Positions 1-35,228 of a stretch of 35,228 nt of DNA are shown here, piece after piece. Source of the stretch: an uncultured Verrucomicrobiota bacterium. GTDB lineage: Bacteria > Verrucomicrobiota > Verrucomicrobiia > Verrucomicrobiales > Akkermansiaceae. The position numbers were made by a program, and so were the translations under genes. Positions within the stretch are counted from its first letter, which is position 1. The number at the start of each line of letters is the position of its first letter. The DNA is taken from positions 1 to 35,228 of the forward strand of contig CALMKO010000316.1 in the NCBI GenBank assembly GCA_937867415.1, written 5' to 3'. The notes below the pieces were generated by a model. The model had not been told where the DNA came from, ran no database searches, and saw nothing but the letters and a program-made list of their open reading frames with translations.

Positions 1-397
1 CCTTGATCGGTGGGGAGGGTTTGGTGGTAGCGCGCAAGGCTACCACGGGAACGGCCGCAGGAACGGCGACAGGAACGGCGACAGGAACGGCGACAGGAAC
101 GGCGACAGGAACGGCGACAGGAGTGGCGACAGGAGTGGCGACAGGAGTGGCGACAGGAGTGGCGACAGGAGTGGCGACAGGAACCGATGGCTCTGCCAGA
201 GAATCAGGAGAGACCGTTGGGAGGTTTTCTGGAGCAGGGGGCGTGGAAGTGTCGGCCGGTGGCGTGACAGGCGCTTTTTCAGCCTCACCTTGAAGGCGGT
301 CTTTCAGCTGTTGCAGGGCCTCTGGATTCTGCTCGAGAAGCCCGATCAGGTCATTCAGGAGCTTCTGCTGATTCGGTACTTGGTTAGATGGATTCAT
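1..397 (-). CDS. Pro/Val-rich tandem-repeat protein, N-terminal part (cut by window edge)
   Basis: I do not recognise this protein. The minus-strand frame opens at ATG 397-395 (MNPSNQVPNQQKLLNDLIG...) and stays open for 132 codons to the window edge, so the C-terminus is missing. The first ~45 residues are Gln/Leu-rich and probably helical (LLNDLIGLLEQNPEALQQL). A Pro/Thr/Ser-rich linker follows, then five PVAT and five PVAV four-residue repeats, then a basic Pro-rich stretch. Competing frames over the repeat (TATG/VATG on plus, SPFL/SPLL on minus) close within the window and lack a convincing start, so this frame is the best choice. There is no signal peptide or membrane segment in the visible part. 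The leader just before ATG is C/A-rich with no good ribosome binding site. It is divergent from the barrel-like gene at 926. A low-complexity spacer or scaffold role is only a guess. Confidence 0.6.
   Translation of the reverse strand, partial: MNPSNQVPNQQKLLNDLIGLLEQNPEALQQLKDRLQGEAEKAPVTPPADTSTPPAPENLPTVSPDSLAEPSVPVATPVATPVATPVATPVATPVAVPVAVPVAVPVAVPVAVPAAVPVVALRATTKPSPPIK
48..179. repeat. 12-bp tandem repeat, 11 units in two homogeneous blocks
   Basis: Eleven head-to-tail 12-mers. The first (48-59) is degenerate, then five identical GGAACGGCGACA units (60-119), then five identical GGAGTGGCGACA units (120-179). The two unit types differ by two adjacent bases, which changes Val (GTT) to Thr (ACT) in the minus-strand protein. 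As 12 is a multiple of three, copy-number change would lengthen or shorten the protein without breaking frame. Confidence 0.95.
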
Positions 398-4177: not shown

Positions 4178-4420
4178 TCAGGATGTCGAGCGATCCCGCA
4201 CGGCATCATAGACATACCAATCCTCTAGCCGCTTGCGTGCCCATGGGGTTTTGCGGAGGAAGGTCAGGCTGGATTTGATCGTTGGATCGAACATGAAACA
4301 ACGGATTGGAATCCGGACGCTCATTTCCTGCCAGCCGTGTCGGTCCACCACAGCGCGGAGCACGGTTTCCAGGGTTAGCCCGTGCAGGGGGTCGTTCGGA
4401 TGGGACGAGGGTGATGGCAT
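4178..4420 (-). CDS. VF530 family (DUF2132) small protein
   Basis: A small conserved protein of the VF530/DUF2132 family; its biochemical role is unknown, although its fold has been associated with DNA binding. The diagnostic stretches are DPLHGLTLETVL, IPIRCF and SSLTFLRKTPWARKRLEDWY, which span nearly the whole 80 residues and match the family's usual compact length. I start at the ATG at 4420-4418, just before the domain. An in-frame ATG at 4477, preceded by GGGAAG, would add 19 residues and cannot be excluded. It is convergent with the HD-hydrolase gene and divergent from the small membrane-protein gene at 4520. Confidence 0.88.
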   Translation of the reverse strand: MPSPSSHPNDPLHGLTLETVLRAVVDRHGWQEMSVRIPIRCFMFDPTIKSSLTFLRKTPWARKRLEDWYVYDAVRDRSTS

Positions 4421-4519
4421 CTGCTGCGGATGATTCGTGAAATTCCAATCTGCGTCAATTTTTCCATTTCCGAGCATTCAAGTTGCTTCCCGGGCCGTCA
4501 TGGGGAAACTGGAGGGCGC

Positions 4520-11683: not shown

Positions 11684-14600
11684 TCATTCGAGGATCTCTA
11701 ACACCTTGTCATCCGAGTTGGCGCGGAGTTCGGGGGCATACATGGCTTCGGCGGTGGCGGGCAGGGCTTTGTAGGTTCCCGGGGCCTCGGCGCGGAGTTG
11801 ATAGCGCAGGGTGTGGGTGCCACGGGGAAGGGCACGGATGAAGAAGTTCACCGATTGATCGCGTGGTTCCATGTAGGCGTTCAGCCCCGCCCCGGCGATG
11901 TAGCCACTGAGTGAATCAAGCGCTTCGAAACCGGCGGCCTTGAGGTCGGAGAAGAGCAAGTATTCGTAGTCGTTTTTGCTATCCAGGATGAGTTCCACTT
12001 CGATGCGGTCGCCGGAGCGGAGTTGGGCAGCATCCGCGAGGGGTTCGCGGCGGAAGCGCTCGGCTTGTTGTTTCACGACGAGGCCGGTGGCGTCTGGGAC
12101 TTCGGTTTCTTTTTCGAGCGCGACGACTTTGGAGAGGTTGCGGGTGAGTTTTACCTCGAGGCCGGCGGCGCGGAGCTTGTCCTCGAGGGTGAAGACTTCG
12201 AGATAGGCGTTGGCGTAGAGGCTGCCCTTGCCGGTTTTCCTGAGCTCGATGTCGTGCTTGCCGGTGGCGAGGTCGTCTCCCGCGAGGGTGATGGTTCCGT
12301 CAAAGGTGAAAAGGTTCTCACGGGTGATGGAGATTTTCCGGAGCGATTTGCCGTCTAACAAAACTTCGGCCTCCATGTCCGGACTGTCCTCGCCGCTGGC
12401 TTTGAAGTAGCTGGCGATGGCCTCGATGGCGAAGGCGGTGTCGCGGGTGGAGTCCCAGTAGGTGGCGTGTTTGCGGTTGTTGACGAGGTATTTGACGAGG
12501 CCGCGGGTGTCGGGGTCGTTGGGCTTTACGGCGGCGAGCAGTTTAAGATACCATGCGTGGGCCTCAATTTCGCTGCCATACCAGTTCCAGCGATAGGTGT
12601 TGTTTTGGAGGTCGAGGTAGGCGCTTTGGTTTTCCGGGTCGCGCTTGAGGAATTGTGAAATCATTTTCATCACCTCGTCACGGCGGGCCTCGTCGCCTTG
12701 GCGGTGGTGTTCAAGAGCGAGCAGGCATTTGGCGTAAACCGGGAGGGTGATGCGGTCGCGGTGGAGGAAGGCAAGCATCGGCTCTGAGTCGCGCTTGGCC
12801 TCACCGAGGACGAGGCGGACAAAGGCATCCATGGCGTCGGTGGTGGCTTTTTCCGGTTTGTTCGAGGGTTTGAGTTTTTTACCTTCCTTGCGGAGGGCGT
12901 CGCGCTCGACGTGGCGTTGCAGGTCGGCGACTTGGGTCCGCTCGTAGGAGGCGAGCCAGGCGAGGCCGCGGGTGCGCATTTCCTCGGGGATCTTTGCGCC
13001 GTTCTGATTTGCGACGAACAGGCCATGGACCACCACGGCGGTGGTGTGAGGGTAGGAGGTCTCGCCATAGCCGGAGAACCAGCCCCAGCCGCCATCGGCA
13101 TTCTGCATGGCGGCGAGTTTTTCGATTCCTGAGGCGACTCTTTGGGTCATTTCCGCTTCGTCAAACACGGGGTTGCCCTGCCATTGTTTCCACTGGGTGG
13201 CGCGGGTGGCAGAGTTGCCGAGTTCCTGAGGGTTGAGGTTGTTGCGTTTTGCTTTGACCTCGGCGAGGTTGACTTTCATTTCCCTGAGCATTTGCTGGGC
13301 GATGACGGCGGGCACGAAGCGGTTGAGCGTCTGCTCGGTGCAGCCGTGCGGGTATTCTGCTAGATAGGGAATGGCGTCGACCACTGCCCCGGCGATGGTG
13401 GGGGAGAAGCGGACGGTGAGCTTGGATTGATCCGGGCGACGTTGGGCGGGAATCTCGATCTGGATTTTCGCGCTGTCGGCCGTGGGTTCGACCACGCGGC
13501 TCCATGCGTCCTGGCGCAGCATGCCGTGAACGCGGACCGGCATCTTTCGTTCGACGGCGTCGCCGTCATCGCCGGAGTCCGCTCGCATGCGGAAGGTTGC
13601 CTCGCCTTCCCGCAGGGCTTGGACTCGCCAATCGACGCGGGCTTCGGAATTCGCCGCGATTTCCAAGGTCTGCGGGGCACCGTCCAGCGCTGTGAGAGTG
13701 TGGCCATCCAGTTCGAGCGAGATTTTGACGCTCTTGGGGGAATCGTGGTCGTTTTGGACGATGGCGCTGAGGACGGCTTCATCGCGCTCGACGAGGAAGC
13801 GCGGGGCTTGAAGCCGGACTAACAATTGTTTGGAGGTGATGATTTCCGTGCTGCCCTCGCCGACTTGGGTGCCTTTGGTCAGGACCCAGACGCGGGCTTT
13901 CCAGGTGGTGAGGTTGTCGGGGAACTCGAGGGGGATCTCGGCATGTCCATCCGCGTCGGTCTGGATCGCGCCGGACCATTTGAGGAGATCTGCGAAGTCC
14001 TTGCGGACAAGGATGGGTTTGGCGCCGAAGGGGGCGTTCGATTCAGCGAGGGCGCTTTTGGCGGCGAATCCATCGGCCGCCATTTCCATGGGGGCTGCGG
14101 CCATTTCGGCAACTCCGTTTCCTAGCGCTAACCCGCGCCCAAACATCATGCCGCCTCCGCCGCCCATGGGACTGTTGCTGAAGCGGCCGAGTGTTTGCAT
14201 GGCGGTGGTTTTGGGTTTTGTTAGATTTCCGCTGGGCTCGGGGATCGAGCCGGCTGATTGCTGGGGGTGGTAGTTGTTTTTCCAGGCCCAGAAGTTTTCC
14301 TGGATGGGATCCACGTTGGAACCACCGGTGATCGCTTCGAGGGCCTTGTCGTAAATGGATAGAATGGCGGTGCCGCTGATGGGGTTGCCGGTGGAGTCGC
14401 GGAGGGTGACGCGGAGCGAGGATTTTTCCTGCGGCTTTACGCGGGATTTGGTGGGTTCCAGGGTGACTTCGATGAGTTTGCCAGCGGGTGGCAGGAGGAT
14501 CTCGCGGACGGCGGTGTGGACCTTGGCACCGAAGACCGTGACGCCCTCGATAAACATGTTAGGCATGTCGCGGAGATCAAGCGGCACCTCGACTTCGAGG

Positions 14601-28865: not shown

Positions 28866-30680
28866 TCAGAAAGCCGTAAAATAGACGACAAGCAGAACTC
28901 CCAGACCGAAGCAGAAGGCATAGCCTTGGAGGCTGCCGGACTGGACCTTGCGGAAGATGTTGCCGAAGGATTCCGCCGCGCGGCTCAGGCCCCCGACGAG
29001 CAGGCCATTGATGAGCAACTCGTCGAAGAATGCGATGATGGCGGCGAAGGCGTCCTGGAAATAACGCACGAGGCCCTTGTCGTAAATGGTGTCGATGTAA
29101 AAGCGGTTCTTGAACAGCGGGATGGAGACCGGGTCCTTTTCTTTTCCGGCGTAGAGGACCAACCCCAAGATCACGCCGATGACGAGCGCGGCGATGGATA
29201 CGTAGGTGACTGTTCCGAAGTGAATGAGGTGCTCCGGAGCGACGTAAGCCGGAGAAAGCTTGCTGGCGACGAAGGGGAATCCGGCGATGAGTCCCAGCAC
29301 GGCCAGAATGACCAGCGGACCAACCATCAGCGGGCCGACTTCATGCGCGTGGTCGGCGTTTTCGGACTTGGTTTTCCCCAGAAAGGCGACGACGAAAAGC
29401 CGGGTCATGTAAAACGGGGTGAGCACCGCGACGAGGGCGGCGATCCAGAAAAGCGCCGGGTTCTGGTGGTGGGCGGCCTCGAGGATCTGTTCCTTCGAGA
29501 AGAAGCCGGAAGTGAACGGAACCGCGATCAAGGCGGCGAAACCGATGGCGAATGTCAGCCCGGTGAGCGGCATTTTTTTCAGCAAGCCGCCCATTTTCCA
29601 GATGTTTTGTTCGTGATGGCAGGCGTAGATGACCGCGCCCGAGCCGAGGAAGAGAAGCGCCTTGAACCAGGCGTGGGTGAAGAGGTGGAACATGCCCGCC
29701 TGCCCGGCCACGAGGCCCACGGCCATCACCATGTAGCCGAGTTGGGAGAGCGTCGAGTAGGCGAGGATTTTTTTGATGTCGTCCTGCTGGGTGGCCATGA
29801 GTGCGGCGACCAGCGCGGTGATGCAGCCGGTCCAGGCGATGACCGTGCTGGCTTGAAGCGCTGTGAAGTGCTCGAAGCCGAGGGTGAATTGCAGGCGGAA
29901 GAGCATGTAGACCCCCGCGGCGACCATGGTGGCCGCGTGGATGAGTGCGGAGACCGGAGTGGGGCCTTCCATGGCATCCGGCAGCCAGACGTGAAGCGGA
30001 AGTTGCGCAGACTTGCCGATGGCCCCGCAGAAGATGCAGAGGACTGCGGCGGAGAGCACTCCACCAGCGATGGCGGGATTGGCGGCGATGAAGGACTCCA
30101 GGCCGCCCTTCATGGAGTCGAAGGCGAGGTGGCCGGTGATGCCCCAGAGCATGAGGATGCCGATCATGAAGCCGAAGTCACCGACGCGGTTGCAGAGGAA
30201 GGCCTTCTTGGCGGCATCCGCAGCGGAATCCTTTTGATACCAATGGCCGATGAGCAGGTAGGAGCTGAGTCCCACGAGTTCCCAGAACATGAAGGTCATG
30301 ATGAAATTGTCCGCCAGCACGATGCCGGTCATGGAAAACATGAACAGGGAAAGCCCGGTGAAGTAGCGGGCCTTGGCCTCATCCTCTTTCATGTAGGCAA
30401 GTGAGAAAATATGGACTAACAGCCCGACGCCCGTCACCACGATCATCATGCCGGTGGAGAGCTGGTCGAGCTTCAGGCCGATGTTGATGGAAAAGTCACC
30501 GATGGTGGCCCAGTTGAAATGAGAGGTTTCATTTTTCCCTAACAACAACACCGCGATCACGAAGGTCGCCAGCGTCGAGGCCGTCGAGACGAGCGGTGCG
30601 AGTCCGGTTTTTTTGAGGACGAGTTGGTTCGCCGCCGCGATGGCCAGCGGGAGGAAGAGGAGGAGCCAGGGAAGGGTCAT
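28866..30680 (-). CDS. nuoL: NADH-quinone oxidoreductase subunit L
   Basis: Antiporter-like membrane subunit of complex I that carries one proton pathway and the long lateral helix; 604 residues, normal length. Key residues are visible: E134 in MFWELVGLSSYLL and K223 in IGKSAQLPLHVWLPDAMEG, a nearly invariant motif, followed by SALIHAATMVAAG. The C-terminal ~60 residues (YDKGLVRYFQDAFAAI... and a last hydrophobic helix) fit the lateral helix end. It is the last nuo gene present: nuoM and nuoN do not follow. It starts 24 bp after nuoK. Its leader CTTCACCCATATCCCATCTC contains no G, so translation initiation cannot use a Shine-Dalgarno sequence. Confidence 0.97.
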   Translation of the reverse strand: MTLPWLLLFLPLAIAAANQLVLKKTGLAPLVSTASTLATFVIAVLLLGKNETSHFNWATIGDFSINIGLKLDQLSTGMMIVVTGVGLLVHIFSLAYMKEDEAKARYFTGLSLFMFSMTGIVLADNFIMTFMFWELVGLSSYLLIGHWYQKDSAADAAKKAFLCNRVGDFGFMIGILMLWGITGHLAFDSMKGGLESFIAANPAIAGGVLSAAVLCIFCGAIGKSAQLPLHVWLPDAMEGPTPVSALIHAATMVAAGVYMLFRLQFTLGFEHFTALQASTVIAWTGCITALVAALMATQQDDIKKILAYSTLSQLGYMVMAVGLVAGQAGMFHLFTHAWFKALLFLGSGAVIYACHHEQNIWKMGGLLKKMPLTGLTFAIGFAALIAVPFTSGFFSKEQILEAAHHQNPALFWIAALVAVLTPFYMTRLFVVAFLGKTKSENADHAHEVGPLMVGPLVILAVLGLIAGFPFVASKLSPAYVAPEHLIHFGTVTYVSIAALVIGVILGLVLYAGKEKDPVSIPLFKNRFYIDTIYDKGLVRYFQDAFAAIIAFFDELLINGLLVGGLSRAAESFGNIFRKVQSGSLQGYAFCFGLGVLLVVYFTAF

Positions 30681-30704
30681 GAGATGGGATATGGGTGAAG
30701 ATGC

Positions 30705-31025
30705 TTATCCTTTGAGCGATGTCAGTTCGTCGGTGTGAATGGTTTGGCGGGCGCGGTAGAGGGCGACGATGATGGCCAGGCCGACGGCGACTTCCGCAGC
30801 AGCCACGGTGATGACAAAGAAGACGAGCATTTGGCCTTGGTAATCCGGCAGGCCGTTGGGCGTGGGATTGAAGCGCGAGAAGGCGACGAGCGAGAGGTTG
30901 GCCGCGCTGAGCATGAGCTCCAGGCACATGAACACGATGATGATGTTCCGGCGGACGACAACGCCCGCGAGGCCGATGGCGAAGAGGAGTCCCGAGACGA
31001 GCAGGTAGTCGTGGAGTGATGCCAT
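30705..31025 (-). CDS. nuoK: NADH-quinone oxidoreductase subunit K
   Basis: Small membrane subunit of complex I, 106 residues, three transmembrane helices. The first covers [17 protein letters not shown], the second [20 protein letters not shown], which contains the conserved membrane Glu (LELML) of the proton path, and the third [20 protein letters not shown] with the second conserved Glu (AAEVAVG). Length and motifs are typical. It lies 68 bp downstream of nuoJ; the 25 nt before its ATG contain no G. Confidence 0.97.
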
Positions 31026-31093
31026 GGTTGGTAAATGGTGATGGGTGATGGACCGGTGTTAAGATTTTTGGCGGATGATTGATGATTGGAGAA

Positions 31094-31657
31094 TCAATCC
31101 GCCTGGCGCTTGGAGAGGACCACGACGCCGACCGTGGCGACGAGCAGGAGGACGCCGAGGACTTGGAGTGGCATGTTGTAGTCGGTGAAGAGCGTGTGGC
31201 CGATGAGGTGCACGTCTGGCAGTTTTCCCTGACCGAGTGTGGTGGCGATCTTGCTGGTGGGTGCGAAACCGGCGGCTGCGGAGGCAAGCGTGGCGGGATC
31301 GAGCGGCGGAGCGGTCTTGTCGGGCGTCCGCGAGAGCACGCCGATGAGTTGCACGGTGAAGACCAGGAACAAGGCGATCCCCGAGGCGATCGGGAGCAGG
31401 GGTTTGGCGGCTTTTTCCTCATCCTTGAGGTCGAGCAGCATGATGATGAAGAGGAACAGCACCATCACCGCACCGGTATAGACCAGGATCTGGATCACGC
31501 CGACGAAGAAGGCGCTCAGGCCGATGAAAAGGCCCGCGAGGCCGACGAAACAGGTGACCACCGCCATGGCGCTGGAGACGGGATTGCGGAAAGCGATCAC
31601 GGCACCACCGCCGATGAGCATGATGGTGGAAAAAAGCCAGAAGAGGTAACTAGGCAT
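31094..31657 (-). CDS. nuoJ: NADH-quinone oxidoreductase subunit J
   Basis: Membrane subunit of complex I next to the quinone site, 187 residues with five predicted transmembrane helices. The family signature is in helix 3: GVIQILVYTGAVMVLFLFII. Other hydrophobic segments are LFWLFSTIMLIGGGAVIA, SAMAVVTCFVGLAGLFIG, SGIALFLVFTVQLIGVL and LQVLGVLLLVATVGVVVL. A loop of about 50 residues (PDKTAPPLDPATLAS...) between the last two helices is typical of this subunit. It lies between nuoI and nuoK; the 33 nt before its ATG contain a single G. Confidence 0.95.
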   Translation of the reverse strand: MPSYLFWLFSTIMLIGGGAVIAFRNPVSSAMAVVTCFVGLAGLFIGLSAFFVGVIQILVYTGAVMVLFLFIIMLLDLKDEEKAAKPLLPIASGIALFLVFTVQLIGVLSRTPDKTAPPLDPATLASAAAGFAPTSKIATTLGQGKLPDVHLIGHTLFTDYNMPLQVLGVLLLVATVGVVVLSKRQAD

Positions 31658-31735
31658 TTGGTAATATGTTATACTTTAATGGTGATTGGTGGATAGGAGA
31701 CTGCCCTTATCGCTTGTAACCAATAACATCCCACA

Positions 31736-32302
31736 TCATTTCAGTTCGTTCCATTTGTTGACGAGGCCGGTGCGGACGCCGCCGATTTCGTAGAGCTTTT
31801 TCTTGTTGTGGACCATGTCCGCGCGTTTGAGGCCGGTGATGAGGTAGTCCTTCCGCAGATAGATCGCCTGTTCGGGACAGACTTCCTCGCACATGCCGCA
31901 GTAGATGCAGCGGATCATGTCGATGTCGAATTCGAGCGGGCGCTTCTCCACCTTGGCCCACGGGTCATCGGAGGGGATTTCGCTGGGTTTGATTTTGATG
32001 GCCTTGGGCGGGCAGATGAACTCGCAGAGCTGGCAGGACACGCAGCGTTCGCGGCCTTGTTCATCGGTGACGAGGGTGGGTGCGCCGCGGTAGTAGTCGG
32101 GGAGGTGGGAGTCCCAGCGTTGTTCGGGGAACTGCATGGTCACGCCGAGTCCGGAAGAAGCGAGTTCCTTGGCTCCCACGGATTTTCCGAGGAGGGTTTT
32201 GACCGCATGGGTCATGGTGAGGAAGAAGCCCTTGACGAGCGCTCCGAAGTAGATTTTTTCCCCGAAATTGAGCTTCGGGCGTTGGAGTTTGACGACGGCC
32301 AT
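31736..32302 (-). CDS. nuoI: NADH-quinone oxidoreductase subunit I
   Basis: The 188-residue peripheral-arm subunit carrying the two [4Fe-4S] clusters N6a and N6b that pass electrons towards the quinone site. Ligands are C87, C90, C93, C97 (CVSCQLCEFICP) and C132, C135, C138, C142 (CIYCGMCEEVCP). The N-terminus has the amphipathic FGALVKGFFLTMTHAVKTLL segment used for membrane contact, and the typical HLPDYYRGAP. Length matches the family. It lies 40 bp after nuoH, across a spacer made of 7-bp repeats. Confidence 0.97.
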   Translation of the reverse strand: MAVVKLQRPKLNFGEKIYFGALVKGFFLTMTHAVKTLLGKSVGAKELASSGLGVTMQFPEQRWDSHLPDYYRGAPTLVTDEQGRERCVSCQLCEFICPPKAIKIKPSEIPSDDPWAKVEKRPLEFDIDMIRCIYCGMCEEVCPEQAIYLRKDYLITGLKRADMVHNKKKLYEIGGVRTGLVNKWNELK

Positions 32303-32304
32303 TG

Positions 32305-32336
32305 GAATTTGAGATTTGAGATTTGAAATTTGAGAT
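32305..32336. repeat. 7-bp tandem repeat in the nuoH-nuoI spacer
   Basis: Four and a half degenerate copies of a heptamer with plus-strand consensus AGATTTG (32305-32336). On the nuo coding strand it reads as CAAATCT units with no G. It ends 2 bp before the nuoI start codon. Confidence 0.85.
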
Positions 32337-32342
32337 CCCCAA

Positions 32343-33599
32343 TTAAGCGCGAAGGACTTTCGGATTCTCTTCGGATACCTTGGCCACCCAGATGACGGCG
32401 AGGGTCACGATGACGAGCAGGACGGCACCGATGCCGATGATGGTCTTTTCGAGCTGGGGAGCTGCGAGGATGAGAGCGGCGAGGAAAACATTGATGAGGG
32501 CGGCTTCGAAAAAGACCACCCAGCCGAGTTTCATGAGTTGGTCATAGCGGAACCGGGGTACGGTCCAGCGGACGAGGATGAAGAACAGGATGAAGGCGAT
32601 GAGCTTGGTCATGAAGCAGCCCATGTGGATGAGTCCGCCGAAGTAGAAGTCGCCGATGTGGAGGTCTGTCACGTATTTGTCCAAGCCGAAGCCGATGGAC
32701 CAGCCACCGAGGAAGAGGGTGATGATGAGCGCCGAGCCGATGACCATGGCGGCGTATTCGCCCATGAAGAACATCGCGAATTTCATCGAGGAATACTCGG
32801 TGTGGTAGCCGCCGACGAGCTCCGTCTCGCACTCGGGGAGGTCGAAGGGCATGCGGTTGGTTTCCGCGAAGATGGAGATGGTGAAAATCAGGAAGGCGAT
32901 GGCGGCGGGGAACCAAAAGAGGACGGTGTTGATGTCGGGGAGGCCGAGCTGGCCATTTTTCCAGAGCGGGAGAAGTAGCCAGCCGTTTTCCGCTTGTTTC
33001 TGGACGATGGTGCTCAGGTTGAGGTCGCCGTAGAACATGAGCACGGGGATGATCGACAGGCCGAGGGCGATTTCGTAGGAGATCATCTGTGCTGTGGAGC
33101 GGACGCCGCCGATGAAGGGGAATTTGGAGTTGGAGGACCAACCTGCGAGGGTGATGCCGTAAACGCTGAGCGAGGCGACGGAGAAAATGAACAGCGGCCC
33201 GATGTCGAGATCCGCGATGACGAGTTTTTCCGTGTGGCCGAAGATCCCGAGGGGCGAGCCGAAGGGGATGACGCAGACGGTGATGAGCGCGGGAACCACG
33301 GTGAGCGCGGGGGCCATCCAGAAGAAGGCCTTGCGGACATGGTCGGGGGTGAAGTCCTCTTTGAGAAAGAGTTTCAATCCATCGGCCACGGGTTGGATCA
33401 GGCCGAAGAGGTGGAAGTCCTTTTTGAATCCCAGCAAGGTCAGTGGGATGCCCACGCGGTTGGGGCCTACGCGGTCCTGGATGACGGCGGAGAAGCGGCG
33501 CTCGAAATAAACGGAGAGCGGCACCAAAGGCAACACCACCACAAAGGTGAGGAGGACGATCTTGGTGACGATGATGGCGAGTTGGAAAATGAGATCCAC
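32343..33599 (-). CDS. nuoH: NADH-quinone oxidoreductase subunit H
   Basis: Membrane subunit that forms the quinone chamber with NuoB and NuoD, 418 residues, about eight to nine helices. The signature YFERRFSAVIQDRVGPNRVG is near the N-terminus, followed by GLIQPVADGLKLFLKED. The second signature FAETNRMPFDLPECETELV, with acidic residues of the E-channel, is about two thirds along, and TEYSSMKFAMFFMGEY follows. It is longer than E. coli NuoH (325) because of extra loops and a C-terminal helix. It starts with GTG at 33599; the 30-nt spacer from nuoG contains no G on the coding strand. Confidence 0.96.
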   Translation of the reverse strand: MDLIFQLAIIVTKIVLLTFVVVLPLVPLSVYFERRFSAVIQDRVGPNRVGIPLTLLGFKKDFHLFGLIQPVADGLKLFLKEDFTPDHVRKAFFWMAPALTVVPALITVCVIPFGSPLGIFGHTEKLVIADLDIGPLFIFSVASLSVYGITLAGWSSNSKFPFIGGVRSTAQMISYEIALGLSIIPVLMFYGDLNLSTIVQKQAENGWLLLPLWKNGQLGLPDINTVLFWFPAAIAFLIFTISIFAETNRMPFDLPECETELVGGYHTEYSSMKFAMFFMGEYAAMVIGSALIITLFLGGWSIGFGLDKYVTDLHIGDFYFGGLIHMGCFMTKLIAFILFFILVRWTVPRFRYDQLMKLGWVVFFEAALINVFLAALILAAPQLEKTIIGIGAVLLVIVTLAVIWVAKVSEENPKVLRA

Positions 33600-33629
33600 G
33601 GGGAAGATTGGAAGGTTATTTGTTAGTTT

Positions 33630-35228
33630 TCACCCATTGATCAAGCCGGCGGCTTTGCGGGCGCGTTCGTTGGCGAGCAGGGGGATCTGGTAGCCGGTGT
33701 CAGCGATTGGTGTGCCTTGGTGGCCGATTTTCGAGAGGGTGAGTCCGTTGAAGGAGGTGATGTTTTCCGCGATGGCCTTGAAGACATCCTCAATGTTGTG
33801 GGCCTCGTTGGGTCCGCCGGAAAGGGCGAGCAGGAGATCGCGGAGGATTTCCCAGTCGTCGCGGACCTGGCCGGTGGGCTCGACGGCGCGGTTGAGGCGT
33901 TGGAGGCGACCGGAAAGATTGACCATGGAGCCGCGCTTCTCGGCGAAGGCGGCGGAGGGAAGCACCAGGTGGGCGTGGTCCGCTGTGGCGTTGGCAAGAA
34001 TGCTGGTCTGGAGCAGGAAATCAAGTTTTCCAAGGTCTTCTGCGGTGAAGCCGGCGTCGGCGATGAGGTCTTCTCCGAGCACGATGAGTGCTTGGATCGC
34101 GCCGCTTCGAACGCCGTCGCGGATGGCGTCAAGCTTGGCGAAGGGCTGCTCGGTTCCGAGGACGAGCTGTGCGCCGGTGGTGTTCGGGTTGCGGTCCGCT
34201 GCGACGAGCAAGGCGTCTGCTTCTGCAAACCGGGGAACCAGCGTGACTTGGTCAGTGCCGATTTCCGTGGCGAGGGCGCGGGTGAGGAAGAGTTCCTCAT
34301 TGGTCATGCGCCCGGAGGCGATGATTGCGATTTTTCCGGCCGGATGGGCTTTGATTTTGGCGGCGGCCTCGGTGATCGCGGCGGTCCAGGAAATCGGTTG
34401 GTGGCCCTGCGGGCTGGCCGCGAGGGGCTCGGTGAGACGGGAAGGGCTGTCGATGTAGTGGAAATTGAGACGATGGGAGTCGGGCATCCAGGCGGAGTTC
34501 ACCTCGTCGTTCAGGCGCGGGGTGATGCGGTGGATTTGATTTCCGCGGGTCCAGACGTTGATGTTGGTGCCGGTGCCGCAGTTGACGTCGATGGTGGGGG
34601 TCTCCTTGAGGAACCAGACCCGCATTTGGAAGCGGAAGTCATTGGATGTCAATGCTCCGACGGGGCAGATGTCAGCGGTGTTGAGGGAGTAGTTCGAGTC
34701 CAGGAGGCGGCCCGGATGGACGGTGAGGGTGGTGTGGGTGCCGCGTTGGGTGAAGCCGAGAACCGGGTCGCTGGCGACCTCGTCCATGAAGCGGATGCAA
34801 CGGCTGCACATGATGCAGCGCTCGTCATCGAGGCGGATGCGGGGGCCGATCTCGACGTTTTTCGGTTTTTTCACCTTCATGTCCACGAAGCGTGAGACGC
34901 CGCGACCGTGTTGGACGGATTGTTCCTGGAGGCGGCACTCACCGGCTTGGTCGCAGATGGTGCAGTCGAGCGGGTGATTGATGAGGAGGAACTCCATGAC
35001 GCCCTCGCGGCATTTTTCGACGAGTTCGCCAGTGGTGCGGATTCCCATGTTTTCGCCGACGGTGTTGGCGCAGGCGATGACCGGGCGGGGCATCCAGCCG
35101 ATGATTTCGTAGCCATTTTCATCCCGCTGCGGTTCCTGGCCGGGGGCGGGGCGGGGTGGCATGCCCATTTGAACGAGGCACATCCGGCAGTTTCCGGGTG
35201 AGGAAAGCTTGGGGTGGTAGCAGTAGTG
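33630..35228 (-). CDS. nuoG: NADH-quinone oxidoreductase subunit G (N-terminus beyond window)
   Basis: Large iron-sulfur subunit of the peripheral arm. The frame is open to the window edge: 532 codons are visible, starting HYCYHPKLSSPGNCRMCLV, part of the N-terminal [2Fe-2S] site, so only about 35 residues are missing. Further ligands are DCTICDQAGEC (after INHP, where His helps bind N5), CIMCSRCIRF and DICPVGAL. A molybdopterin-oxidoreductase-like domain follows (GTGTNINVWTRG, IHRITPRLNDEVN, IAIIASGRMTNEE, HLVLPSAAFAEKRGS). With a predicted total near 570 residues it is much shorter than E. coli NuoG (~908), mainly by loss of C-terminal parts. nuoA-F presumably lie to the right, outside the window. 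Confidence 0.95.
   Translation of the reverse strand, partial: HYCYHPKLSSPGNCRMCLVQMGMPPRPAPGQEPQRDENGYEIIGWMPRPVIACANTVGENMGIRTTGELVEKCREGVMEFLLINHPLDCTICDQAGECRLQEQSVQHGRGVSRFVDMKVKKPKNVEIGPRIRLDDERCIMCSRCIRFMDEVASDPVLGFTQRGTHTTLTVHPGRLLDSNYSLNTADICPVGALTSNDFRFQMRVWFLKETPTIDVNCGTGTNINVWTRGNQIHRITPRLNDEVNSAWMPDSHRLNFHYIDSPSRLTEPLAASPQGHQPISWTAAITEAAAKIKAHPAGKIAIIASGRMTNEELFLTRALATEIGTDQVTLVPRFAEADALLVAADRNPNTTGAQLVLGTEQPFAKLDAIRDGVRSGAIQALIVLGEDLIADAGFTAEDLGKLDFLLQTSILANATADHAHLVLPSAAFAEKRGSMVNLSGRLQRLNRAVEPTGQVRDDWEILRDLLLALSGGPNEAHNIEDVFKAIAENITSFNGLTLSKIGHQGTPIADTGYQIPLLANERARKAAGLING

What the first reader, a model, noticed from the sequence alone, without database searches (positions are those of the whole stretch)
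30681..33629. G-free translation-initiation regions across the nuo operon
On the coding strand, the bases just before the start codons contain almost no G: nuoH 0 in 30 nt, nuoI 0 in 34, nuoJ 1 in 33, nuoK 0 in 25, nuoL 0 in 20. With G near 30% of bases this is far from chance. A Shine-Dalgarno sequence is therefore impossible for five consecutive cistrons. Similar G-poor leaders precede the genes at 926, 3526, 11429, 23493 and 26028. This suggests an unstructured-leader or ribosomal-protein-S1-type initiation mode, as proposed for Bacteroidetes, rather than random weak sites.
Basis: seen in the sequence. Interest (0 to 1): 0.55.

Follow-up and report, generated by a model that had tools for sequence, protein, structure and literature searches.

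The report
G-free seven-base repeats before genes
In this Verrucomicrobial genome most sampled genes start without the usual ribosome-binding signal, and the gaps inside the respiratory nuo operon are built of short seven-base repeats, almost free of G near the starts, that probably keep the messenger RNA open for the ribosome.

Summary
In detail: the five nuo leaders hold 0, 0, 1, 0 and 0 G in the stated stretches. Two things lie behind it. (1) A moderate G depletion of leaders over the sampled genome (0.12-0.19 against 0.28-0.33 before internal ATGs), C-rich rather than A-rich, without a general Shine-Dalgarno (SD) signal and with weak mRNA structure; relatives keep an intact anti-SD. SD scarcity is already in print for Akkermansia, so this layer is known. 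(2) The extreme G-freeness of the nuo leaders comes with a second feature: the spacers are made of degenerate seven-base direct repeats (nuoI: CAAATYT; nuoK: CATCACC). Period 7 stands far above shuffles in the window and in nuo spacers of relatives. The unit often changes between species, and most arrays lie within 40 nt of the start, mostly in the G-poor orientation. CAAATYT arrays also precede ribosomal-protein, suf and aspartyl-tRNA synthetase genes here; ordinary spacers of unselected contigs lack the period. The Bacteroidetes analogy is weak: C at -1, no Tyr54 in bS21, and rplP keeps a conserved SD. Closest known: TAACTGA heptamers of Beggiatoaceae. Best reading: repeat-built, unstructured ribosome landing stretches in place of SD. 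Mechanism inferred, not shown.

The parts
33600..33629 (-). nuoG-nuoH spacer, 30 nt, no G; heptad-like AACTAAC/AAATAAC at about 33615-33628 (read by eye)
32303..32342 (-). nuoH-nuoI spacer, 40 nt; CAAATYT array (3 full units and a partial one) at about 32306-32332, last 34 nt G-free
31658..31735 (-). nuoI-nuoJ spacer, 78 nt; heptads CACCAAT/CACCATT at about 31678-31691 (read by eye); 1 G in the last 35 nt
31026..31093 (-). nuoJ-nuoK spacer, 68 nt; CAATCAT x2 near the stop, CATCACC x2 + ATTTACC at about 31030-31050 (read by eye); last 27 nt G-free
30681..30704 (-). nuoK-nuoL spacer, 24 nt; heptads CACCCAT/ATCCCAT at about 30684-30697 (read by eye); last 23 nt of the leader G-free
32343..33599 (-). 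nuoH (GTG start; ATG in 69 of 78 placed nuoH starts)
31736..32302 (-). nuoI
31094..31657 (-). nuoJ
30705..31025 (-). nuoK
28866..30680 (-). nuoL
33630..35228 (-). nuoG, runs off the window

Best explanation
Translation in this lineage mostly starts without SD pairing, on leaders kept single-stranded by removing G on the mRNA strand while keeping C (shown as a composition pattern; the function is inferred). In a subset of core operons, nuo among them, the spacer before the start is filled by short seven-base direct repeats whose unit has little or no G. The arrays arise and change by slippage or a similar duplication process (inferred from the different units found at the same spacers) and are kept where they give a long, unstructured, low-G stretch on which the 30S subunit, probably through S1, can land next to the start codon (inferred). 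The anti-SD is intact in relatives and is probably still used by a few genes such as rplP.
For: Leader G 0.17-0.19 over -15..-1 in 532 genes and 0.12-0.15 in 222 with unambiguous starts, against 0.28-0.33 before 3279 internal ATGs; SD-like 4-mers in 6.8% of leaders against 7.7% in shuffled leaders and 14.3% before internal ATGs. Fold energy -30..+30 is -9.1 at starts against -15.6 at 600 internal ATGs and is nearly matched by base-shuffled leaders (-9.4), so the loss of G accounts for most of it. Second genome of the genus (G009), unambiguous starts: G 0.13, SD 4-mers 2.6% of 39. Window nuo spacers: lag-7 matches 106 against 58.8 (0 of 500 shuffles reach it); without the nuoI spacer 82 against 49.6 (0 of 2000). 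nuo spacers of relatives: lag-7 runs of 10 or more in 44 of the 255 distinct spacers of 20 nt or longer (282 of 15 nt or longer) against 0.8 in dinucleotide shuffles; z 22, 15.1 and 8.8 at lags 7, 14, 21. nuo leaders are 9-14% G over -30..-1 and SD-like 4-mers occur in 5.1% of 429. 42 of 49 arrays end within 40 nt of the start; of these 34 have G<C, 7 G>C, 1 a tie. Own-genome CAAATYT arrays with both neighbours known: 11 of 11 point at the downstream start of a same-strand pair, 1-22 nt away, and 2 more of 2. Their downstream genes, named by eye, include uL14, uS19, uL3, SufC, GltD, AspRS, Cas2 and nuoI; looser heptad leaders precede uL15, SufB, RRF and GlmS. The uL14 leader is 6.4% G in 30 loci, with heptads listed in 9 of them. 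Six S1 domains in one 578-aa frame.
Against: No expression or ribosome data. In 89 spacers of unselected contigs the 7-nt period is absent (z 1.2), so the repeats serve only some operons; 10 of the fetched contigs were picked because they held arrays, the ribosomal operon's among them. Another unit, CTGAWMA, points both ways in the genus (of 42 arrays, 10 forward and 10 reverse between same-strand genes, 6 facing an opposite gene, 4 inside calls, 12 at edges), reverse copies often lying close to stop codons; a long CAAATCT array in each of two genomes of another family faces a convergent gene. Both fit a DNA-level repeat without a role in translation. The 7 near-start arrays with G>C are A/T-rich ones with 1-2 G. 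In the ribosomal operon lag 6 (z 8.5) and lag 8 (z 5.4) exceed lag 7 (z 3.7), although lag-7 runs of 10 or more are commonest (10 of 171 spacers, 0.25 in shuffles; lags 6 and 8: 6 each). In relatives a G-free run of 20 or more precedes 8 (H), 37 (I), 26 (J), 23 (K) and 8% (L) of the spacers, so the window is at the extreme. Leader G depletion is weak in one genus member over all calls (0.254 against 0.274, G004).
Confidence: 0.6

Rival explanations
1. The heptads are neutral or selfish DNA repeats (slippage-prone or copied by an unknown route) that gather in spacers because coding sequence excludes them; their poverty in G is incidental and they do nothing for translation.
For: CTGAWMA arrays occur in both orientations (10 and 10 between same-strand genes) and some as inverted pairs in one spacer; units often differ between close relatives at one spacer; a slippage hypothesis for the excess of heptamers in bacteria is quoted in PMC4692102 (passages).
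Against: Strand and place bias near starts (34:7 within 40 nt, against 2:5 further away); uniform orientation of CAAATYT in the own genome where both neighbours are known (11 of 11 and 2 of 2); presence in operons of essential complexes.
Confidence: 0.22
2. The heptads are binding sites of a dedicated post-transcriptional regulator (S1, a cold-shock protein or another RNA-binding protein) that co-regulates nuo, ribosomal and suf operons.
For: A shared unit across unlinked core operons in one genome; the same proposal was made for TAACTGA repeats (PMC4679880, abstract and passages).
Against: The unit is mostly not conserved between species at the same nuo spacers, which fits composition better than a fixed motif; CAAATYT is shared at nuoI by a few (L094, L100, L104).
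Confidence: 0.13
3. Bacteroidia-type initiation: the anti-SD is hidden by bS21/bS18/bS6 and A-rich Kozak-like context selects the start.
For: SD scarcity with an intact 16S tail in relatives; bS21 found in 20 of 20 genomes.
Against: No Tyr54 (K at that position by collinear numbering); no SD-like 4-mer before rpsU in 13 of 13 genus loci; C at -1, A at -3 only 0.28; conserved SD before rplP.
Confidence: 0.06
4. G is avoided in order to remove competing NTG start codons, so that a scanning or re-initiating ribosome meets the true start as the first NTG.
For: A G-free stretch cannot hold ATG, GTG or TTG; out-of-frame ATG is 0.107 per leader against 0.207 before internal ATGs.
Against: NTG is not specifically depleted: out-of-frame NTG/GTN is 0.462/0.389 per leader; the TG dinucleotide is at 0.96 of expectation. 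Re-initiation over about 20-40 nt is reported to be nearly abolished in E. coli and Haloferax (PMC10666635, abstract and passages); the nuo spacers are 24-78 nt.
Confidence: 0.06

Closest known systems
[quoted passage not shown] glycaniphila and Verrucomicrobia bacterium IMCC26134
   Same: Same phylum; several of the nearest named genomes are titled Akkermansiaceae. Intact CCUCC with few SD-bearing mRNAs
   Different: That class is defined by scarce SD pairing; here also a C-rich, G-poor leader, C at -1, and heptad arrays; rplP keeps an SD
TAACTGA direct repeats of Beggiatoaceae, Cyanobacteria and Bacteroidetes (MacGregor 2015, PMC4679880; abstract and passages read)
   Same: Seven-base direct repeats between genes, in the Beggiatoaceae mostly oriented to and close to start codons, seemingly in place of SD, also in ribosomal-protein operons
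   Different: One fixed unit there, related heptamers rare; here several units (CAAATYT, CTGAWMA, CCAATAT, CATCACC) that often differ between species at the same spacer; 'Verrucomicrobia' has 0 occurrences in that text
GGGAATC heptamers of Xanthomonas and GGGGAYT of Nostoc (Rehm 2015, PMC4692102; passages read)
   Same: Heptameric intergenic repeats, some in inverted arrangement, variable between close relatives
   Different: G-rich, studied as quadruplex formers
Non-SD nucleotide bias classes (Nakagawa 2017, PMC5397173; passages read)
   Same: C immediately upstream of the start and weak structure in non-SD genes of several phyla
   Different: 'Verrucomicrobi' has 0 occurrences in that text; no repeats in the passages seen

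Membership tests
[quoted passage not shown]
   GGATCACCTCCTTTC in 23 of 28 16S loci scanned on both strands, with five same-genus genomes (G004, G009, G015, G028, G032) among them; 4 of the 5 misses are partial genes, L131 is full length without the motif as searched. The own 16S is a 5' fragment, so this is shown for relatives only
[quoted passage not shown]
   5-base SD cores in 1.9% and 4-mers in 6.8% of 532 leaders, not above shuffles (7.7% for 4-mers); pairing energies were not computed
Bacteroidia-type anti-SD sequestration | Tyr54 of bS21 | tested here: not met
   K54 in the own bS21; 7jil_z aligns 5-53 to 5-53. The residue-by-residue alignment to 7jil was not printed; position 54 follows by collinear numbering
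Bacteroidia-type anti-SD sequestration | strong SD before rpsU | tested here: not met
   no SD-like 4-mer in the 22 nt before the ATG in 13 of 13 genus loci; the one locus outside the genus that was read (L331) has AAGGA, 6 of the 20 loci were not parsed
Bacteroidia-type anti-SD sequestration | bS21/bS18/bS6 pocket residues and hidden 16S tail | not tested
   bS18 and bS6 were not examined; needs a structure
TAACTGA-type heptamer repeats | tandem direct repeats of seven bases between genes, close to and pointing at start codons | tested here: met
   not met for CTGAWMA as to direction
TAACTGA-type heptamer repeats | unit TAACTGA | tested here: not met
   window units are CAAATYT, CATCACC and others; (CTGATAA)n, the same unit in another phase, occurs in some genus members
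Leaderless mRNAs | transcript begins at the start codon | not testable with these tools
   no transcript data; nuoH-L are tightly spaced co-directional genes, so internal leaderless starts would need internal promoters
S1-dependent initiation | multi-domain S1 that binds the leader | tested here: inconclusive
   six S1 domains in one 578-aa frame, C30:28537-30030; binding not testable

The most novel reading that the evidence does not exclude
In Akkermansiaceae, core operons carry self-renewing ribosome landing sites: seven-base repeats of low G content that arise anew with different units at the same spacers in different species, so that composition and period, not sequence, are what selection keeps. 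Heptamers described separately in Beggiatoaceae and Cyanobacteria would then be instances of one general, convergent way to replace SD sequences.
Probability: 0.3. Interest if true: 0.68.

Novelty: new variant of a known kind. Interest (0 to 1): 0.48.

Why it matters
Several phyla start translation largely without SD, and what replaces it is an open question. A set of orthologous spacers in which the sequence turns over while low G, position and a seven-base period recur gives a natural experiment: it separates composition from motif and can be tested by swapping units in a reporter. It also suggests that start-site models trained on SD or on A-rich leaders will fit these bacteria poorly.

Tried and rejected
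Start-codon avoidance as the cause of G loss: NTG is not specifically depleted. A genome-wide heptad code: no period in 89 unselected spacers (z 1.2) or 113 divergent leaders (z 1.7; lag 9 has z 2.8). A strict rule that arrays always face the start: holds for CAAATYT in the own genome where both neighbours are known, fails for CTGAWMA and for other families. Bacteroidia mechanism: see membership test. CAAATYT as a phylum-wide element: 8 of 194 genomes drawn from the phylum, the own one included, hold 19 bases of it in tandem. My first gene calls for G004, G009 and G041 were trained on little sequence; one search repeats them with the own-genome model, and the G041 result stays unreliable (coding fraction 0.59). 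A first scan of 16S tails looked at one strand only (9 of 28); one search looked at both (23 of 28).

Limits: genes were called by my own script (codon model, no leader information), not by a published caller; 841 kb of 4.9 Mb of the own genome, window included, were used, 10 of the fetched contigs chosen because they held arrays. The lag-7 result for the own genome includes these; one search leaves them out. Gene names were assigned by eye from the translations; nuo names rest on the finding and on the likeness of relatives, no family search was run. Spacers shorter than 15 nt, holding N, or without a placed upstream stop were dropped, and those of 15-19 nt were not tested for runs (27 of 282).
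Full report
What was claimed. The window is contig C316 of a 4.9-Mb, 470-contig draft. The ten best-listed named matches to its NuoH are Verrucomicrobia, Akkermansiaceae and Luteolibacter records at 80-91% identity, so the host is probably an Akkermansiaceae member near Luteolibacter.

The observation. It is exact at the stated coordinates. The G-free runs before nuoH, I, J, K and L are 31, 34, 16, 27 and 23 nt, nuoJ having one G in 35. The GTG start of nuoH is the one called here; of 78 placed nuoH starts 69 are ATG, 7 GTG and 2 TTG.

Layer one: the genome. I called 550 genes on 841 kb with a codon model that uses no leader information. In 532 leaders G falls from 0.25 at -60..-51 to 0.17-0.19 over -15..-1; with unambiguous starts (222) it is 0.12-0.15 there; before 3279 internal ATGs it is 0.28-0.33. 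SD-like 4-mers occur in 6.8% of leaders, 7.7% after shuffling them, and 14.3% before internal ATGs. The leaders are C-rich; -1 is C in 58% and +4 is A in 46%. The first codons are G-poor too (0.196 over +4..+33 against 0.284 after internal ATGs). Predicted folding around starts is much weaker than around 600 internal ATGs (-9.1 against -15.6) and nearly the same as in base-shuffled leaders (-9.4), so removing G is how structure is lost. One further genome of the genus, G009, repeats this (G 0.13, SD 4-mers 2.6% of 39 unambiguous starts); another, G004, shows it less (0.188 in 26 unambiguous starts against 0.246 further upstream, and 0.254 against 0.274 over all 81 calls).

This layer is not new: a survey lists Akkermansia muciniphila, A. 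[quoted passage not shown]

Layer two: the heptads. The nuo leaders are more extreme than the genome: a G-free run of 20 or more precedes 5.7% of 385 leaders on unselected contigs but four of the five nuo genes. The reason is visible by eye and by count: the spacers are built of degenerate seven-base repeats. Over the five spacers, lag-7 identities number 106 against 58.8 in shuffles (0 of 500 reach it); leaving out the nuoI spacer with its obvious array, 82 against 49.6 (0 of 2000). Lags 3-6 and 9-13 are at chance, lag 8 is slightly raised (p 0.034), and lag 14 is raised (69 against 48.4, 0 of 500).

The same holds in relatives. From 110 loci I placed 429 nuo starts. Of 282 distinct spacers, 255 are 20 nt or longer; 44 of these hold a lag-7 run of at least 10 against 0.8 in dinucleotide shuffles, where other lags from 4 to 15 except 14 give 0-7; z is 22 at lag 7, 15.1 at lag 14 and 8.8 at lag 21, 6.4 at lag 8 and below 2 at lags 6, 9 and 13. 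The units often differ between species at the same spacer: CAAATYT, CTGAAAA, CTGATCA, CCAATAT, CTAACCG, TAACNNA and a nine-base CCGACCCAT, while a few species share CAAATYT at nuoI. Of 49 arrays in 270 spacers, 42 end within 40 nt of the start; of these 34 have fewer G than C on the mRNA strand, 7 more (A/T-rich ones with 1-2 G) and 1 is a tie; of the 7 further away 2 and 5.

In the window's genome the CAAATYT unit is dispersed: 31 overlapping pattern places against 0 for the reversed pattern. In the fetched stretches two or more units form 16 arrays, 0 for the reversed control; 11 lie between two called genes and all 11 point at the downstream start of a same-strand pair, 1-22 nt away; 3 are at contig edges and 2 inside called genes on the same strand. 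Further own-genome loci add 2 of 2, with the rest at edges, inside a call, or in one inverted pair without called genes. The genes behind the 11 arrays read by eye as uL14, uS19, uL3, SufC, GltD, AspRS, Cas2, nuoI, an oxidoreductase and two that I did not name; looser heptad leaders precede uL15 (unit CTGAAAA), SufB, RRF and GlmS. In a second operon, 30 loci around uL14, the uL14 leader is 6.4% G, and heptad leaders (CAAATYT or CAACTCT) are listed for 9 of the 30 loci, in several behind a short GC-rich inverted repeat; over all 171 spacers of that operon lag-7 runs of 10 or more are commonest (10, 0.25 in shuffles), but lags 6 and 8 have higher z (8.5, 5.4) than lag 7 (3.7).

Against a tidy story: unselected spacers show no period (z 1.2); CTGAWMA arrays in the genus face both ways (10 forward and 10 reverse between same-strand genes among 42 arrays), the reverse ones often near stop codons; and only 8 of 194 genomes across the phylum, the own one included, hold 19 bases of CAAATYT in tandem, two of them with a long array that faces a convergent gene. 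So the repeats behave partly as a DNA phenomenon. A slippage hypothesis for the excess of heptamers in bacteria is quoted in PMC4692102 (passages).

Is it the Bacteroidetes mode? Probably not. There the 16S tail is held by bS21, bS18 and bS6, with Tyr54 of bS21 unique to Bacteroidia and a strong SD before rpsU in many members (PMC9976891, passages). Here bS21 has K54 by collinear numbering, and rpsU has no SD-like 4-mer in the 22 nt before its ATG in 13 of 13 genus loci. In addition, an SD-like motif precedes rplP in 28 of 29 loci. The start there is probably the ATG nine bases upstream of the one first taken; in the 26 loci with that layout the 20 nt before it hold AGGAGGA in 9, AGGAG in another 9 and AGGA only in 8, the own genome among these last. 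AGGA-type motifs also precede rpsH and rplF in about two thirds of loci (0.69 of 26, 0.67 of 24). A usable anti-SD is the simplest reading.

Mechanism. Shown: composition, weak predicted structure, absence of a general SD, the period, its position and strand bias. Inferred: that low structure is what the ribosome needs, that S1 (six domains) helps, that arrays are retained for this. The closest published case is TAACTGA (PMC4679880, abstract and passages). My searches for heptamer or heptanucleotide repeats with Verrucomicrobia, start codons or Cyanobacteria, and for TAACTGA, showed no paper on such repeats in Verrucomicrobiota among the rows listed; these are full-text searches of open-licence papers only, and only 8-20 rows of each were seen.

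Noticed in passing
L342-L368, leader of the uL16 gene (own genome C250, about 14021-14060): An SD-like motif is conserved before rplP in 28 of 29 loci, AGGAG or better in 18 of 26 re-read, in an otherwise SD-poor lineage; a possible special case of regulation.
   Followed up: partly
L312-L327, start of rpsU: ATGCGTGGAGTGA at the start of bS21 is invariant, third codon positions included, in 13 of 13 genus loci, with an SD-like GGAG across codons 3-4.
   Followed up: partly
nuoI-nuoJ spacers of L107 and L116; G010:C164:14319-14375; own contig C286 about 4382-4436: Heptads occur as inverted pairs in one spacer, in the nuo cases with the reverse copy near the stop and the forward copy near the start; this could form a hairpin or point to a copying mechanism.
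   Followed up: partly
L342, L348, L349, L355, L362, L366, L368, spacer before uL14: A short GC-rich inverted repeat (GCCGGCTTCGCCGG-like, read by eye) precedes the G-free heptads.
   Followed up: no
G043:C11:23745-23910: A very long CAAATCT array, over 20 units, in another family of the order.
   Followed up: no
L116, L169, L179, L190, nuo spacers: Repeats of other periods, such as AATCCTGTA (9) and an AATCTGCG-type (10), stand in the same place as heptads in some species.
   Followed up: no
window 61-180: Tandem run of GGCGACAGGAAC/GGCGACAGGAGT units inside an open frame at the window's start.
   Followed up: no
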